From positions 3,476,001-3,540,000 of the forward strand of contig NZ_CP009928.1 in assembly GCF_001021975.1 (NCBI RefSeq): a DNA stretch of 64,000 bases, written 5' to 3'. Below the pieces are notes generated by a model. It had not been told where the DNA came from, made no database searches, and worked only from the letters and a program-made list of their open reading frames with translations. Both the position numbers and the translations under genes were made by a program. Shown here in pieces: positions 17,590 through 23,517 of the stretch; within the stretch, counting starts at the first letter, position 1, and every line of letters starts with the position of its first letter. This DNA comes from Chryseobacterium gallinarum. GTDB lineage: Bacteria; Bacteroidota; Bacteroidia; Flavobacteriales; Weeksellaceae.

Positions 17590-17619
17590 TTGTGGGTTTC
17601 TAAAATTGTTGTATCTTTG
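17590..17619 (+). promoter_or_regulatory. Predicted promoter of the pyrB leader
   Basis: TTG (17590-17592) and TATCTTTG (17612-17619) lie 19 bp apart, matching TTG-N17-23-TAnnTTTG. The leader ATG at 17626 starts only 6 bp after the -7 box, so the transcript would be nearly leaderless. Confidence 0.7.
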
Positions 17620-17625
17620 CACCTA

Positions 17626-17697
17626 ATGAATAAAAAAGCATTTATATCATTAGACTTACCGGGCGAAAGCGCCCTTTACGATATTTATTGTTATTAA
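17626..17697 (+). CDS. Putative pyr leader peptide (23 residues)
   Basis: A 23-codon ORF starts right after the promoter (MNKKAFISLD...) and ends LYDIYCY with TAA at 17695-17697, directly abutting the 5' arm of a terminator hairpin (17698). Its 3' third is U-rich (Tyr, Asp, Ile, Tyr, Cys, Tyr codons). Size, position and overlap with the hairpins match the logic of the Escherichia coli pyrBI leader: a ribosome close behind the polymerase would mask the terminator. Translation has not been shown. The peptide itself probably has no function. Confidence 0.6.
   Translation: MNKKAFISLDLPGESALYDIYCY
17661..17674 (+). promoter_or_regulatory. Pause-type hairpin in the pyr leader
   Basis: GGGCG-AAAG-CGCCC forms a five-pair GC stem inside the leader ORF. 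It is followed by a U-rich stretch (TTTACGATATTTATTGTTATT in two parts: TTTACGATATT and TATTGTTATT), as expected of a UTP-sensitive pause site. Inference from layout. Confidence 0.5.
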
Positions 17698-17724
17698 GCG
17701 AAGATAGTTGTCTTCGCTTTTTTT
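17698..17724 (+). terminator. Intrinsic terminator (attenuator) before pyrB
   Basis: GCGAAGA (17698-17704) pairs with TCTTCGC (17711-17717), followed by seven T. It lies between promoter and pyrB start (17744), so it must be bypassed for pyrB expression and is best read as an attenuator. Confidence 0.8.
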
Positions 17725-17743
17725 ATGCCCAAAAATAAGAATT

Positions 17744-18634
17744 ATGTTTACGATTACAGAACTAAGCACCGAGAGAATCAACAGTATACTGACAGAAGCC
17801 CTGGCTTTTGCAAACGGTAAAACTGCTAAAATTGAAGGAGAAGTTTTTTGCTCAAACCTTTTCTTCGAAGACAGTACAAGAACAAAAACAAGTTTTGATA
17901 TTGCAGAAAGAAGATTAGGACTTCAGGTTGTGCCTTTTGATGCCTCACACAGTTCCGTAAATAAAGGGGAAAGCCTGTATGATACAGTGAAAACGATTGA
18001 AAGCCTGGGGGTAAACCTGGTGGTGATCCGGGATAAAAAAGACAGGTATTTTGAAGAATTGAAGAATATAAAGATTCCTGTAATCAATGGCGGTGACGGA
18101 ACGGGAAACCATCCTTCACAATGTATGCTGGATCTGATGACCATCTATCAGGAGTTTGGGAAATTTGAAGGACTGAAAGTAGGAATTGTAGGGGATGTGA
18201 AACACAGCCGTGTAGCCAATTCCAACGCAGAAGCACTAAGAAGGCTGGGAGCAAAAGTATATTTCTCAGGACCCGAACAATGGTTTGATGAAGGAGCTTT
18301 AATCAACGGAACATATCTGTCAGTAGATGAACTAATTGCCGAAGTGGATGTTCTGATGCTGTTAAGAATCCAGCATGAAAGACATGATGCAGCAATGAGT
18401 TTTACCGCTTCAGAATATCACAAAAGATATGGTCTGACCAAAGAGAGGGAAAAAGCCATGAAAAAAGAAGCAATCATCATGCATCCGGCACCTATCAACA
18501 GGGGCGTGGAAATAGATTCTGATCTGGTAGAATGCGAAAGATCAAGAGTGTTCAAACAAATGCAGAACGGCGTCTTCGCCAGAATGGCTATTTTGAAAGA
18601 AGCCCTGGAAGAGAAAGGGTTTACCTTTAAATAA
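17744..18634 (+). CDS. pyrB: Aspartate carbamoyltransferase, catalytic subunit
   Basis: The 296-residue enzyme makes carbamoyl aspartate, the first committed step of pyrimidine synthesis. The carbamoyl phosphate motif STRTKTSF lies at 44-51, and [12 protein letters not shown] near the C-terminus binds aspartate. I set the start at ATG 17744: an upstream in-frame alternative codon falls inside the attenuator hairpin. No pyrI regulatory subunit is nearby. Expression is probably set by the leader/terminator upstream. Confidence 0.95.
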
Positions 18635-18658
18635 AAGAACCAGGGTAAAAGTATGATG

Positions 18659-18811
18659 AGCTCCGTAGGAGCGACCTGTTAATAGCCAAGGATGAAATCC
18701 ATGGTAAATAAATGAAGCCAACAATTGGAAGCCCTGTAGGGGCGACCTGTTCATAACAACGGAAGAAACCCTTGAAAAAATAAAAAGCCTCGTAGAGGCG
18801 ACCTGTTAATA
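18659..18811. repeat. Three hairpin repeats between pyrB and carA
   Basis: Three 26-bp units (18659-18684, 18730-18755, 18786-18811) share AGnnnnGTAGnnnCGACCTGTT and differ in the stem: GCTCC/GGAGC, GCCCT/GGGGC, GCCTC/GAGGC. The stem changes are compensatory, so the fold is conserved. A weaker second hairpin (CCAAGGATGAAATCCATGG) follows unit 1. The units belong to a repeat type I believe is widespread in Bacteroidota intergenic DNA. Confidence 0.8.
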
Positions 18812-18834
18812 AAAAGAAAATCTAAATAGAAAAA

Positions 18835-19917
18835 ATGAAGAAAAAATTAATACTGGAGTCCGGTGAAGTGTTTCATGGAGAAGGTTTCGGAGCTGAATTG
18901 GAAACTGCAGGAGAAGTAGTTTTCAATACCGGAATGACTGGGTATCAGGAATTGATCTCTGATCCATCATATTGTGGTCAGATAGTTTGTATGACCTATC
19001 CGCTTATCGGGAATTATGGTATTAACCGTGATGATTATGAAAGTATCGAGCCGGCAATCAAAGGGCTTATCGTAAAAGAACTTTGCGATCTTCCTTCCAA
19101 CTTCCGTACTCAGATCACTTTAGATGAATTATTTAAAAAGAAAAACCTTTCAGGAATTTCAGGAATTGACACAAGAAGACTGACAAGAATTCTTCGTAAC
19201 CACGGAGTAGTGAAAGGAAAAATTGTGAATGCTGATGCTGATGAAAATGCTGTTGCGGCAGAATTGAAATCAACCAGCTTCCCGATCAATCAAGTGGAAG
19301 AAGTTTCCACTAAAACGCCTTACGCCAATCCAAACAGAGGTTTCAAAGTGGTATTGGTAGATTTCGGGGCAAAATTGGGAATTATCAGGGAATTATCTCA
19401 AAGAAACTGTGATATTATTGTAGTTTCCCAGGATACTACCGCTGAAGATATCCTGTTGATGAACCCGGATGGAATCATGCTTTCAAATGGCCCTGGTGAC
19501 CCGGAAGATGTACCACACGCATTAGATATGATCCGTGGATTATTAGGAAAAGTTCCAATCTTCGGAATCTGCTTAGGACACCAGCTGATTGGTCTTGCTT
19601 GTGGAGCAAAAACATTTAAATTAAAATTCGGACACAGGGGAGGAAACCACCCGGTACTGGATTTAGAAAAAAACAGGGTAGCCATCACTTCCCAAAACCA
19701 CGGATATGCCGTAGATCAGGAAAGCTTAAAAGGAACAGACCTTATCGAAACTCACATAGCCCTGAACGACAGGACAAACGAAGGTCTGAGACACAAAATC
19801 CACCCGTGCTTCTCTGTTCAGTACCACCCTGAAGCAAGTCCAGGTCCTGAAGATGCAAACTACCTGTTTGATGAGTTCATTGATTTAATGTACCAATTTA
19901 AAAATGTACCAGTTTAA
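18835..19917 (+). CDS. carA: Carbamoyl-phosphate synthase, small (glutaminase) subunit
   Basis: The 360-residue subunit releases ammonia from glutamine for CarB. The N-terminal half carries FNTGMTGYQEL; the C-terminal half is a class I amidotransferase with nucleophile C246 (FGICLGHQ) and the His/Glu pair in QYHPEASPG. Length is normal. It is separated from carB by a small four-helix-bundle gene and from pyrB by three hairpin repeats. Confidence 0.96.
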   Translation: MKKKLILESGEVFHGEGFGAELETAGEVVFNTGMTGYQELISDPSYCGQIVCMTYPLIGNYGINRDDYESIEPAIKGLIVKELCDLPSNFRTQITLDELFKKKNLSGISGIDTRRLTRILRNHGVVKGKIVNADADENAVAAELKSTSFPINQVEEVSTKTPYANPNRGFKVVLVDFGAKLGIIRELSQRNCDIIVVSQDTTAEDILLMNPDGIMLSNGPGDPEDVPHALDMIRGLLGKVPIFGICLGHQLIGLACGAKTFKLKFGHRGGNHPVLDLEKNRVAITSQNHGYAVDQESLKGTDLIETHIALNDRTNEGLRHKIHPCFSVQYHPEASPGPEDANYLFDEFIDLMYQFKNVPV

Positions 19918-19928
19918 CAATAATTAAA

Positions 19929-20291
19929 ATGATCAATTTCGAAAACAATCCTTTAATTGAAAAAACCGTTAAGTTCTCATTAGATATTATAGAGTACTGT
20001 GAATTATTGGAAAGTAAAAAGAAATTTATTATTGCTAAACAATTATTACGTTCCGGAACAAGTATTGGTGCAAATTCCTTTGAAGCACAAAATCCATACA
20101 GTAAAAAAGATTTTGTGAATAAAGTCAAAATTGCCGCTAAAGAGCTTGAAGAAACAAAATATTGGTTATACCTGTGTAAACACTCTCAAAGTTATCCATT
20201 TAATGAAAATTTGGAAACACAGATTATAGAAATTGGAAAGATTATTTATAAAATTTTAAGCACAAGTTTATCAAATGAAAACGGGCAGTAA
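19929..20291 (+). CDS. Four-helix-bundle protein (23S rRNA intervening-sequence protein family)
   Basis: The 120-residue protein matches the S23/IVP family pattern: IAKQLLRSGTSIGANSFEAQ and AAKELEETKYWL. Such proteins form pentameric four-helix bundles and are common in Bacteroidota, but their cellular role is unsettled. It lies 11 bp after carA and 46 bp before carB, inside what would otherwise be a carAB operon, and is surely co-transcribed. Whether it affects carbamoyl phosphate synthesis is unknown; insertion as a mobile cargo gene is an alternative. Confidence 0.88.
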   Translation: MINFENNPLIEKTVKFSLDIIEYCELLESKKKFIIAKQLLRSGTSIGANSFEAQNPYSKKDFVNKVKIAAKELEETKYWLYLCKHSQSYPFNENLETQIIEIGKIIYKILSTSLSNENGQ

Positions 20292-20337: not shown

Positions 20338-23300
20338 ATGAAAAGAAACGATATAAAAACAATTTTAGTAATCGGTTCAGGACCTATCATCATCGGTCAG
20401 GCAGCTGAATTTGATTACGCAGGAACGCAGGCTTGTCTGTCTCTGAAAGAAGAAGGCTACAAGGTAATTTTGATTAACTCAAACCCTGCAACAATCATGA
20501 CAGATGTGGAAATCGCTGATAAAGTATATATCGAGCCGATTTCATTACAGTTTGTAAGCCACATCATCAGAAAAGAACGTCCCGATGCATTATTGCCGAC
20601 ACTCGGAGGGCAAACAGGACTTAACATGGCGGTAGAACTGGAAAAATCAGGAATTCTTGAAGAATGCAAAGTAGAAGTATTGGGAACTAAGCTTTCTGCG
20701 ATCAACAGAGCAGAAGACAGAGACCTTTTCCGTGAGCTGATGAGAGAACTGAATGAACCGGTTCCTGAATCTGATATTGTAAATACAGTAGAAGGAGCCC
20801 TCGCCTTTGCTGATGAAATCGGGTATCCTGTCATTGTTCGTCCTGCCTTTACCATGGGAGGAACGGGAGGCGGTATTGCTTCCACAGAAGCCGAATTGAA
20901 GGAGATTGCTGAGCTGGGATTAAAGCACAGCCCGGTTACCCAGTGTCTTATCGAAAAATCAATTGCAGGTTTCAAAGAAATAGAATACGAAGTAATGCGT
21001 GATGCAAACGACAACGCCATTGTAGTTTGTAACATGGAAAATATTGACCCGGTAGGAGTTCACACAGGAGACTCTATCGTAGTAGCACCTTCTCAGACGC
21101 TTTCAGACAGAGAATATCAGTTACTGAGAAATGCTTCTCTTAAGATCATCAGAGCCTTGGGAATTGAGGGAGGTTGTAATGTACAGTTAGCGCTGGATCC
21201 ACATTCATTCAACTACTATATCATTGAGGTTAACCCGAGAGTTTCCCGTTCATCAGCGTTAGCAAGTAAAGCAACAGGATACCCGATTGCAAAGATTGCT
21301 GCGAAAATTGCAGTAGGATTAACACTGGATGAAATCATGAACCCGGTAACAGGAAAAACATATGCGTGTTTTGAACCTGCCCTGGATTATGTGGTGACTA
21401 AATTCCCGAGATTCCCGTTCGATAAATTCGAAACAGCAGACAGAAGGCTTTCCACTCAGATGAAAGCAACAGGAGAAGTAATGGCGATCGGAAGAAACCT
21501 TGAAGAATCTTTACAGAAAGCAATCCGTTCACTGGAAACAGGGATTAGACATTTGGGATTAAAAACCAAGCAGGCCCAGGCCCTTACTGATGAAGAAATT
21601 GAAAGAAGAATCAGGGTGTGTGATGATGAGAGACTATTCATCATCGGAGATGCCTTAAGAAGAGGGTACGACTGGGAGCAAATCGTAGAATGGAGTAAAA
21701 TTGATAAATTCTTCATCTGGAAATTGAAAAAACTGGTTGACTTTGAAAAAGTAATTGCTGCTAATAAATTTGATAAAGAAACTTTAATTGAAGCTAAAAG
21801 ATTAGGTTTCGCAGATATCAATATCGCAGTTCTCTGGGAGGTAACAGAACGTGAAGTGTTCAACTTCAGAAAAGAAAACGGGGTAATGCCGGTATATAAA
21901 ATGGTAGACACCTGCGCTGCTGAATTTGAAAGCGAAACACCATATTTCTATGGGACCTACGAAGAAGAAAACGAAAGTGTTGTCTCAGATAAAGAAAAGA
22001 TCATCGTTTTAGGTTCAGGACCTATCAGAATCGGGCAGGGAGTTGAATTTGACTATGCAACAGTTCACTCGGTATGGGCAATTAAAGAAATGGGTTACGA
22101 AGCGATTATCATTAACAATAATCCTGAAACAGTTTCTACAGACTTCTCCATCTCTGATAAGCTATACTTTGAGCCATTGACGGAAGAAGATGTAATGAAC
22201 ATCATCGAACTTGAAAAACCTAAAGGAGTAGTAGTACAGTTCGGTGGCCAGACTGCCATCAACCTTGCAGATAAATTAGCTTCTCACGGAGTACAGATCT
22301 TAGGAACTTCACTGGAAGACCTTGACAGAGCTGAAAACAGGGATAAATTCGAAAAAGCACTTCAGGAACTTGGTATTCCTCAACCAAAAGGAAGAACTTC
22401 CACCTCAAAAGAAGAAGCCATCAAAATTGCCAATGAAATCGGGTACCCGGTATTGGTGCGTCCAAGCTACGTTTTAGGAGGTAGAGCAATGGAGATTGTA
22501 TATGGAGAATCAGAACTGGCTCATTACATGGAACATGCAGTAGATGCAAGTCCTGAGCACCCTGTTTTGGTAGACAAATACATGGTAGGAAAAGAAATCG
22601 AAGTAGATGCCATCTGCGACGGTGAAACTGTAGTAATCCCCGGAATTATGGAGCATATCGAAAGAGCGGGGGTTCACTCCGGAGACTCTATTGCAGTGTA
22701 TCCGCCACAGAATATTTCTCAAAGCGAAATCGACACGCTGGTTGATTACACCCAAAGATTAGCAAAAGGACTGAATGTTGTCGGATTAATGAATATCCAG
22801 TACGTTCTTTTCGAGGGCAATGTATATGTAATCGAAGTAAATCCGCGTTCTTCAAGAACAGTTCCTTTCTTATCCAAAATTACAGACGTTCCGATGGCCA
22901 ACCTTGCAACGAAAGCAATCTTAGGACAGAAGCTGGCAGATCTTGGTTATAAAAACGGTCTGGTTCCAAACAAAGAAGGAGTATTTGTGAAAGTTCCTGT
23001 ATTCTCTTTCTCAAAACTGACGAAAGTGGATATCTCCCTGGGGCCGGAAATGAAGTCTACAGGAGAGGTTATGGGGAAAGATACAACGCTGGAGAAAGCA
23101 CTTTATAAAGGTCTTGTTGCTGCAGGAAGAAAAGTTCCGATGCATGGATCCATTTTGTTTACGGTAGCCGATAAGCATAAAGAAGAAGCAGCAGCTCTTG
23201 CAGCAAGATTCCATGAAGTAGGATTCAGAATCTGGGCTACGGAAGGTACTGCGAAGTTCTTTGAAGAAAAAGGCATCCCATGCAAAATCGGATACAAAAT

Positions 23301-23517
23301 CGGAGAAGAGGATGTAAACCTGATCGACCTGATCCAGAAAGGAAAAGTTCAGTATGTAGTTAATACAACTACTAAAGGTAAACAAGCCGAAAGAGACGGA
23401 TTCCAGATCAGAAGAATGAGTGTAGAGAATGGAGTTCCTTGTTTAACATCAATGGACACTGTGGAAGCAATCTTAAAAGTAATCGAAAGCATGAGCTTCA
23501 AAATGGAGACGATGTAA
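20338..23517 (+). CDS. carB: Carbamoyl-phosphate synthase, large subunit
   Basis: The 1,059-residue subunit makes carbamoyl phosphate from bicarbonate, ammonia and two ATP. It has two homologous ATP-grasp halves, opened by [19 protein letters not shown] near residue 13 and [16 protein letters not shown] near residue 560. A C-terminal MGS-like regulatory domain follows (about 930-1,059). Its product feeds both PyrB and the arginine carbamoyltransferase encoded just upstream. Length is normal and all core motifs are intact. Confidence 0.97.

What the first reader, a model, noticed from the sequence alone, without database searches (positions are those of the whole stretch)
17590..17744. Possible UTP-sensing transcription attenuator controlling pyrB in a Bacteroidota genome
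The sequence shows a consensus promoter and a 23-codon leader ORF starting 6 bp after the -7 box. A GC hairpin (17661-17674) inside the ORF is followed by a U-rich stretch. An intrinsic terminator has its 5' arm directly at the leader stop codon. This is the same logic as the enterobacterial pyrBI leader, where high UTP lets RNA polymerase outrun the ribosome and terminate. I do not recall this being described in flavobacteria, so it may be independent evolution of the device. Novelty is inference.
Basis: partly seen in the sequence, partly recalled or inferred. Interest (0 to 1): 0.8.

Follow-up and report, generated by a model that had tools for sequence, protein, structure and literature searches.

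The report
Flavobacterial UTP-sensing leader switch before pyrB
Upstream of a pyrimidine-synthesis gene, Chryseobacterium and many of its family carry a tiny leader gene joined to a transcription stop signal, an arrangement like the E. coli pyrBI switch that reads UTP by a race between ribosome and RNA polymerase, but built differently and standing where related families carry the gene of a regulator protein.

Summary
Window 17612-17744 holds a Bacteroidota promoter box, a 23-codon ORF 6 nt later, a GC hairpin, a U-tract and an intrinsic terminator that overlaps the ORF's stop codon, 24 nt before pyrB. Promoter box, ORF and terminator are present at 163 of 167 family pyrB loci read (25 of 26 genera with pyrB), though leader peptides and hairpins differ in sequence. 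In 34 non-redundant leaders the ORF's frame is open to the terminator in 34 (other frames stop early in 32 and 25); 32 have the hairpin (codon shuffles 6.9); positions -12 to -5 before the terminator are 76% U (37% at 308 other terminator-like sites of this genome). No antiterminator pairing stands out. Related families have the PyrR gene next to pyrB; in this family 80 genomes gave no PyrR, only two weak partial hits. Best explanation: ribosome-mediated, UTP-sensitive attenuation of the pyrBI kind, independently evolved, with two differences from E. coli: the leader ORF is predicted to be leaderless (5'-AAUG), and it usually stops on the terminator instead of reading through it. UTP response, start site and translation are inferred, not measured. 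New variant of a known kind.

The parts
17590..17619 (+). Promoter: TTG (17590-17592), 19-nt spacer, -7 box TATCTTTG (17612-17619)
   Evidence: Read from sequence; TAnnTTTG was a criterion for the 163 device loci, in which the ATG follows at 5-7 nt; consensus and its -12..-5 position from passages of PMC9723704.
17624..17626 (+). Predicted transcription start (A17625 most likely), 1-2 nt before the leader ATG: leaderless leader ORF
   Evidence: Base before ATG is A in 33 of 34 and the one before that a pyrimidine in 33 of 34 non-redundant loci; inferred, not measured.
17626..17697 (+). Leader ORF, 23 codons plus TAA
   Evidence: frame open to the terminator in 34 of 34 non-redundant leaders.
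17661..17674 (+). Leader hairpin GGGCG-AAAG-CGCCC (probable pause hairpin)
   Evidence: 32 of 34 leaders have such a stem, 25 distinct 5' arms, against 6.9 (max 12) in codon shuffles; 160 of 163 loci.
17675..17695 (+). U-rich tract, probable UTP-dependent pause region (peak U at 17684-17691)
   Evidence: 76% U at -12..-5 in 34 leaders against 37% at 308 terminator-like sites of the genome.
17696..17724 (+). Intrinsic terminator (attenuator): 10-bp stem, T run
   Evidence: 5 of 9 consensus pairs show changes on both sides with pairing kept.
17744..18634 (+). pyrB, aspartate carbamoyltransferase catalytic chain (regulated gene)
   Evidence: NF002032 358 bits, cut-off 263.
18835..19917 (+). carA, same strand downstream, probably same operon
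   Evidence: carA follows pyrB in 137 of 139 family loci examined, 0 of 48 outside (1.5 kb downstream held).
20338..23517 (+). carB, probably same operon
   Evidence: ORF list; used as carB query; named from its sequence, not scanned against a family library.

Best explanation
A UTP-sensing, ribosome-mediated transcription attenuator of the pyrBI kind controls pyrB (probably pyrB-carAB). RNA polymerase starts 1-2 nt before the leader AUG, so a ribosome can load on the 5' end as soon as it emerges. Polymerase slows at the hairpin and the U-tract just before the terminator. If UTP is scarce it waits there, the ribosome melts the hairpin, follows closely and stands on or near the stop codon, where it covers the 5' arm of the terminator; the terminator cannot fold and pyrB is transcribed. 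If UTP is plentiful polymerase runs ahead, the terminator folds and transcription ends near 17724. Shown by comparison: conserved parts, open frame, hairpin, U bias, stop position, absence of PyrR. Inferred: start site, translation, pausing, UTP response.
For: 163 of 167 family loci have box, ORF and terminator, 25 of 26 genera with pyrB (hand count). Frame 0 open to the terminator in 34 of 34 non-redundant leaders (shuffles mean 7.5, max 15 of 34), frames 1 and 2 stopped early in 32 and 25; stop end exactly +2 of the stem start in 131 of 163, never more than 15 nt before it. Hairpin 32 of 34 vs 6.9 in codon shuffles, 25 different arms. U 0.76 vs 0.37. No leader:terminator 5'-arm pairing above shuffles. 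PyrR: no full hit in 80 family genomes, against 52 of the 53 order genomes outside the family that have pyrB (hand comparison). The published E. coli scheme (passage of PMC10135430) has the same parts.
Against: No expression, TSS or UTP data were available. Leader:3'-arm pairing is slightly better than in shuffles (6 of 100 sets as good). Nine of 163 ORFs read through the terminator. No hairpin by the rule in 2 of 34, 3 of 163. One genus (g17, 4 loci) has pyrB but neither device nor PyrR, and 23 of 80 family genomes have no pyrB at all. The U-tract could serve another purpose. Two loci (L116, L135) needed their terminator assigned by a fixed motif. The alignment tool found the terminator fold but not the leader hairpin as a consensus.
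Confidence: 0.8

Rival explanations
1. A ribosome-mediated attenuator that senses an amino acid or tRNA charging (trp type), for instance aspartate/asparagine, aspartate being the PyrB substrate.
For: Asn 1.75x and Asp 1.42x enriched in the 34 leader peptides against long ORFs of the window; carbamoyl phosphate and aspartate feed the pathway.
Against: No long run of one residue; the window's leader has only 2 Asp and 1 Asn; Arg 0.86x and Gln 0.63x; the Phe, Ile, Tyr excess goes with U-rich codons. No antiterminator with the 5' arm: a ribosome stalled upstream would give termination, the opposite of trp logic.
Confidence: 0.06
2. A coupling sensor without UTP specificity: it reports ribosome supply or general polymerase speed rather than UTP.
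For: The same anatomy would respond to any change in coupling; a hairpin pause does not need UTP.
Against: The tract before the terminator is U, with C+G 4%, where other terminator-like sites of the genome have A; the device was seen only before pyrB in the 2.46 Mb scanned.
Confidence: 0.1
3. Constitutive promoter plus terminator that make a small RNA or a functional micropeptide, with pyrB expressed by read-through or another promoter.
For: The leader would give a short RNA of about 100 nt.
Against: Peptide and hairpin sequences are not conserved between genera; a promoter box after the terminator start in 1 of 163 loci; the device stays with pyrB-carA while the upstream gene changes (lrp found upstream in 107 of 114 genus loci but 2 of 25 other-genus loci).
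Confidence: 0.03
4. PyrR-type control with an unrecognised PyrR-binding loop.
For: PyrR lies next to pyrB in 22 of 22 loci of other families of the order.
Against: No PyrR in 80 family genomes (two 45-residue hits at E about 5e-4 only); in 24 genus genomes NF003549 gives hits of about 30 bits at best, none over its cut-off of 138; hairpin sequence not conserved.
Confidence: 0.01

Closest known systems
pyrBI (pyrL) attenuator of E. coli/Salmonella
   Same: Leader ORF before pyrB, hairpin then U-tract then intrinsic terminator, ORF reaching the terminator; the stem GCGTCT/AGACGC, the U-tract and the terminator were read in E. coli L216.
   Different: E. coli: a GGAGG (Shine-Dalgarno) before the ATG, 44 codons, ORF reads 47 nt past the start of the terminator stem, UTP-dependent slippage at the start (pyrBI named in a passage of PMC6245113). 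Here: predicted leaderless start, 18-26 codons in most, stop on the terminator's first bases, no U-run at the start, unrelated sequence, PyrB 34% identical.
PyrR-mediated control (Bacillus, mycobacteria; PyrR gene next to pyrB in other Flavobacteriales)
   Same: Controls pyr genes; in Bacillus by premature termination (recalled).
   Different: Needs the PyrR protein, not found in this family.
trp/his-type leader-peptide attenuation
   Same: Short translated leader and intrinsic terminator.
   Different: No run of cognate codons and no antiterminator with the 5' arm.
Leader-peptide attenuators suggested in Flavobacterium psychrophilum (PMC9723704, passages)
   Same: Same phylum, same mechanism class, inferred from a transcriptome.
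   Different: Reported upstream of amino-acid operons; the passages seen do not mention pyrB.

Membership tests
pyrBI-type UTP-sensitive attenuation | Intrinsic terminator between promoter and pyrB | tested here: met
   163 of 167 family loci.
pyrBI-type UTP-sensitive attenuation | Leader ORF whose translation would bring a ribosome to the terminator | tested here: met
   Frame 0 open to the terminator in 34 of 34; the other frames stop early in 32 and 25. Translation itself not measured.
pyrBI-type UTP-sensitive attenuation | Hairpin followed by U-rich tract before the terminator | tested here: met
   Pausing itself not measured.
pyrBI-type UTP-sensitive attenuation | No competing antiterminator hairpin | tested here: inconclusive
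   5' arm: 42 of 100 shuffled sets as good, no signal; 3' arm: 6 of 100, marginal.
pyrBI-type UTP-sensitive attenuation | Termination rises with UTP | not testable with these tools
   No expression or in vitro data.
Enterobacterial pyrL lineage (homology) | Related leader sequence, SD-led ORF reading through the terminator, U-run start region | tested here: not met
   none of these is shared by the window; 9 of 163 loci do read through.
PyrR regulation | PyrR gene in the genome | tested here: not met
   No hit in 80 family genomes beyond two weak partial ones; 0 of 24 genus genomes over the cut-off of NF003549.
trp-type amino-acid attenuation | Run of cognate codons plus alternative antiterminator | tested here: not met
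   (3' arm pairing marginal).
Known Rfam leader family | Match over gathering score | tested here: not met
   Best 18.8 bits vs gathering 58.7; only a tRNA elsewhere in the window.
Leaderless mRNA | Transcription start within a few nt of AUG | tested here: inconclusive
   Predicted 1-2 nt from the box position (PMC9723704) and the pyrimidine-A before ATG; no TSS map.

The most novel reading that the evidence does not exclude
An independently evolved, leaderless UTP attenuator that took the place of PyrR control in the Chryseobacterium family: the ribosome loads at the very 5' end of the RNA (Bacteroidia ribosomes do not recognise Shine-Dalgarno sequences), and a ribosome halted at the stop codon serves as the anti-terminator. 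It would show that transcription-translation coupling in Bacteroidota is tight enough to regulate a gene.
Probability: 0.62. Interest if true: 0.75.

Novelty: new variant of a known kind. Interest (0 to 1): 0.62.

Why it matters
It would be a second, convergent solution of UTP-sensing attenuation, in a phylum whose ribosomes do not use Shine-Dalgarno sequences, with a leaderless leader gene. [quoted passage not shown]

Tried and rejected
Rejected: terminator of the upstream gene (that gene is divergent); trp-type antiterminator with the 5' arm; PyrR; known Rfam family; promoter after the terminator; conserved functional peptide. Led nowhere: an own-genome pattern search whose gap was too short for the real spacing (0 hits, my design error); MAFFT alignment A1 did not align the leader hairpins, so RNAalifold reported only the terminator and hairpins were counted by script instead. 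The genus g17 loci were looked at for a cryptic device; none was found.

What the counts rest on. One search kept the best 80 of 154 relatives, so the named loci are all close to Chryseobacterium; of 98 genus genomes with pyrB I read the upstream region of 34. In the family set 57 of 80 genomes have a true PyrB match; 56 were read (G152 is truncated), 52 with the device. Some genomes may be present twice (named and unnamed). Dropped before counts: the four g17 loci (no terminator by the criteria) from the 163-locus table. Box, ATG and terminator were criteria for the table; open frame, hairpin and U-tract were not. The strict scan misses 8 of 167 family loci (4 device loci and the 4 of g17), so it is not complete. 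The comparison of pyrB and PyrR genomes (52 of 53; missing G234, 60% complete) and the count of 25 of 26 genera were made by hand. Outside the family only 48 loci were scanned for the device.

Literature: ten searches of the CC-licensed library listed no paper that I could see to describe this device; papers were seen as listings, abstracts or passages, none in full. Two key reviews are not held, so absence from print is not established.

Full report
WHAT IS THERE. The window lies in a Chryseobacterium-like genome (G000, 4.63 Mb; the named pyrB matches are Chryseobacterium, one an unnamed Weeksellaceae MAG). At 17590-17619 is a Bacteroidota promoter (TTG, 19 nt, TATCTTTG); 6 nt later an ATG (17626) opens a 23-codon ORF that ends in TAA at 17695-17697. 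Inside it is a hairpin (17661-17674), then a U-rich stretch, then an intrinsic terminator whose stem begins at 17696, on the second base of the stop codon, with its T run ending at 17724. pyrB starts at 17744, followed by carA and carB. The coordinates of the finding hold.

CONSERVATION. Of 167 family loci, 163 have box, ATG and terminator in order, in 96 distinct sequences; 115 of the 163 are from the genus and 48 from other genera. The four without are all of one genus, g17, whose PyrB is only 51-52% identical. In the family set, 57 of 80 genomes have a true PyrB match, 56 could be read, 52 have the device: 25 of 26 genera with pyrB (counted by hand). The box-to-ATG distance is 6 nt in 158 of 163, 5 in 4 and 7 in 1. 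By the rules below, 160 of 163 have the hairpin and all 163 have at least 50% U at -12..-5.

CONTROLS. On 34 leaders less than 85% alike: the ATG's frame is open to the terminator in 34 of 34 (26 stop within -15..+5 of the stem start, 8 read through it); the other two frames stop more than 15 nt earlier in 32 and 25; shuffled leaders stay open in 7.5 of 34 on average (max 15 in 500 sets). The open frame was not a criterion for inclusion; box, ATG and terminator were. A stem of at least 4 pairs ends 12-35 nt before the terminator in 32 of 34 (codon shuffles 6.9, max 12 in 300), with 25 different 5' arms and median distance 21.5 nt; mean folding energy of that region is -6.65 vs -3.57 kcal/mol shuffled, 0 of 200 sets as low, while the 36 nt before the ATG show nothing. 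The eight bases at -12..-5 are 76% U and 4% C+G; at 308 terminator-like sites of the same genome they are 37% U, and A is the commonest base nearest the stem. U of 0.70 or more: 24 of 34 against 16 of 308. The leader shows no pairing with the terminator's 5' arm above shuffles (42 of 100 sets as good) and a marginal one with the 3' arm (6 of 100).

ONLY BEFORE pyrB, AS FAR AS SCANNED. In 2.464 Mb of the genome on both strands, the strict layout occurs at pyrB and once more at L316, which is the end of a gene. Allowing up to 60 nt between box and ATG, 13 rows appear in all; one (L315) precedes a purM-like gene and deserves a look. The scan recovers 159 of 167 family loci, so it is sensitive but not complete, and 47% of the genome was not scanned.

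PyrR. In other families of the order, PyrR lies directly upstream of pyrB in 22 of 22 loci read (18 of 26 at phylum level, 0 of 139 in the family). Of 53 order genomes outside the family with pyrB, 52 have PyrR (by hand), the exception being 60% complete. In the family, 80 genomes gave only two 45-residue hits at E about 5e-4. A second test with NF003549 gave weak hits (about 30 bits, E about 1e-7 to 1e-6) in all 24 genus genomes, none over the cut-off of 138, and hits over it in 9 of 15 others; I take the weak ones for other phosphoribosyltransferases. The family's PyrB is also divergent (42-45% identical to the eight order and phylum PyrBs compared), and its pyrB is followed by carA in 137 of 139 loci against 0 of 48 outside. 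No device was found in the 48 order and phylum loci. Absence of PyrR alone does not predict the device: 8 of 26 phylum loci lack PyrR next to pyrB and have no device either, nor has g17.

HOW IT WORKS. The parts are those of the E. coli pyrBI attenuator, for which a passage of PMC10135430 says that with abundant UTP polymerase quickly transcribes pyrL and terminates at the hairpin, while with scarce UTP it pauses on a U-rich template, which gives a coupled ribosome time to prevent the terminator from folding; PMC5021804 (passage) states, after Roland et al. 1988, that tight coupling across the leader is needed. The geometry fits: if a hairpin pause lies about 11 nt past the stem (recalled), polymerase would pause near -10, inside the U peak. 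A ribosome at the stop codon would cover roughly the next dozen bases (recalled), the whole 5' arm. ORFs that run past the terminator (9 of 163) would work as pyrL does; none stops more than 15 nt short of it. One caution from the literature seen: the pyrL pause site and its hairpin are themselves not settled (passage of PMC9291695).

WHAT DIFFERS. First, the leader seems leaderless. In F. psychrophilum the TAnnTTTG box lies at -12 to -5 (passage of PMC9723704), which puts the start here 2 nt before the ATG; the bases before the ATG are pyrimidine and A in 33 of 34 each, which suggests a start at that A. Leaderless mRNAs are rare in this phylum (5.5% in F. psychrophilum; about 3.7% with 5' UTRs under 10 nt in B. 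thetaiotaomicron, PMC7366714 passage), and ATGs at this spacing are hardly enriched in G000 (67 against a mean of 54 at spacings 21-60), so the fixed spacing is special. Bacteroidia ribosomes do not recognise Shine-Dalgarno sequences (PMC9976891, abstract and passages), which may be why. Second, the ORF usually stops on the terminator (154 of 163). Third, there is no U-run at the start, so the slippage control of pyrBI (PMC6245113 passages) is not expected.

LIMITS AND NOVELTY. Nothing here measures transcription, translation or UTP. Ten searches of the CC-licensed library listed no account of this device (Tried and rejected); F. psychrophilum work reports clues for leader-peptide attenuation before amino-acid operons, and a term search of the 2010 premature-terminator survey (PMC2965389) found no word beginning Bacteroid or Flavobact. 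A recent review passage (PMC13328217) assigns PyrR to Gram-positive bacteria, whereas here it is common next to pyrB in other Flavobacteriales. The two main reviews are not held. I rate it a new variant of a known kind.

Noticed in passing
window 18649-18815: Three direct repeats of a hairpin-like unit with the core GTAGGGGCGACCTGTT (up to 1 mismatch) between pyrB and carA; no other copies in the window (0.11 expected).
   Followed up: partly
window 19929-20291: A four-helix-bundle protein gene (TIGR02436) between carA and carB.
   Followed up: partly
L315 about 19489-19600: A 24-codon leader-like ORF after a TATTTTTG box, with a terminator at its end, about 120 nt before a purM-like gene (named from its sequence): a possible further attenuator.
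   Followed up: no
L131 and L207: One family genome (G109) has two pyrB copies, each with its own leader device of different sequence.
   Followed up: no
L211-L214: Genus g17 of the family has a different PyrB (51-52% identity), no PyrR and no device: its control is unknown.
   Followed up: partly
L215 (G062): A genome whose pyrB match is broken into pieces with stops (75% complete assembly) still has an intact leader device.
   Followed up: no
L043 and L069: Two genus loci that lack the usual stop codon; the ORF then reads into or through the terminator and does not stop early.
   Followed up: partly
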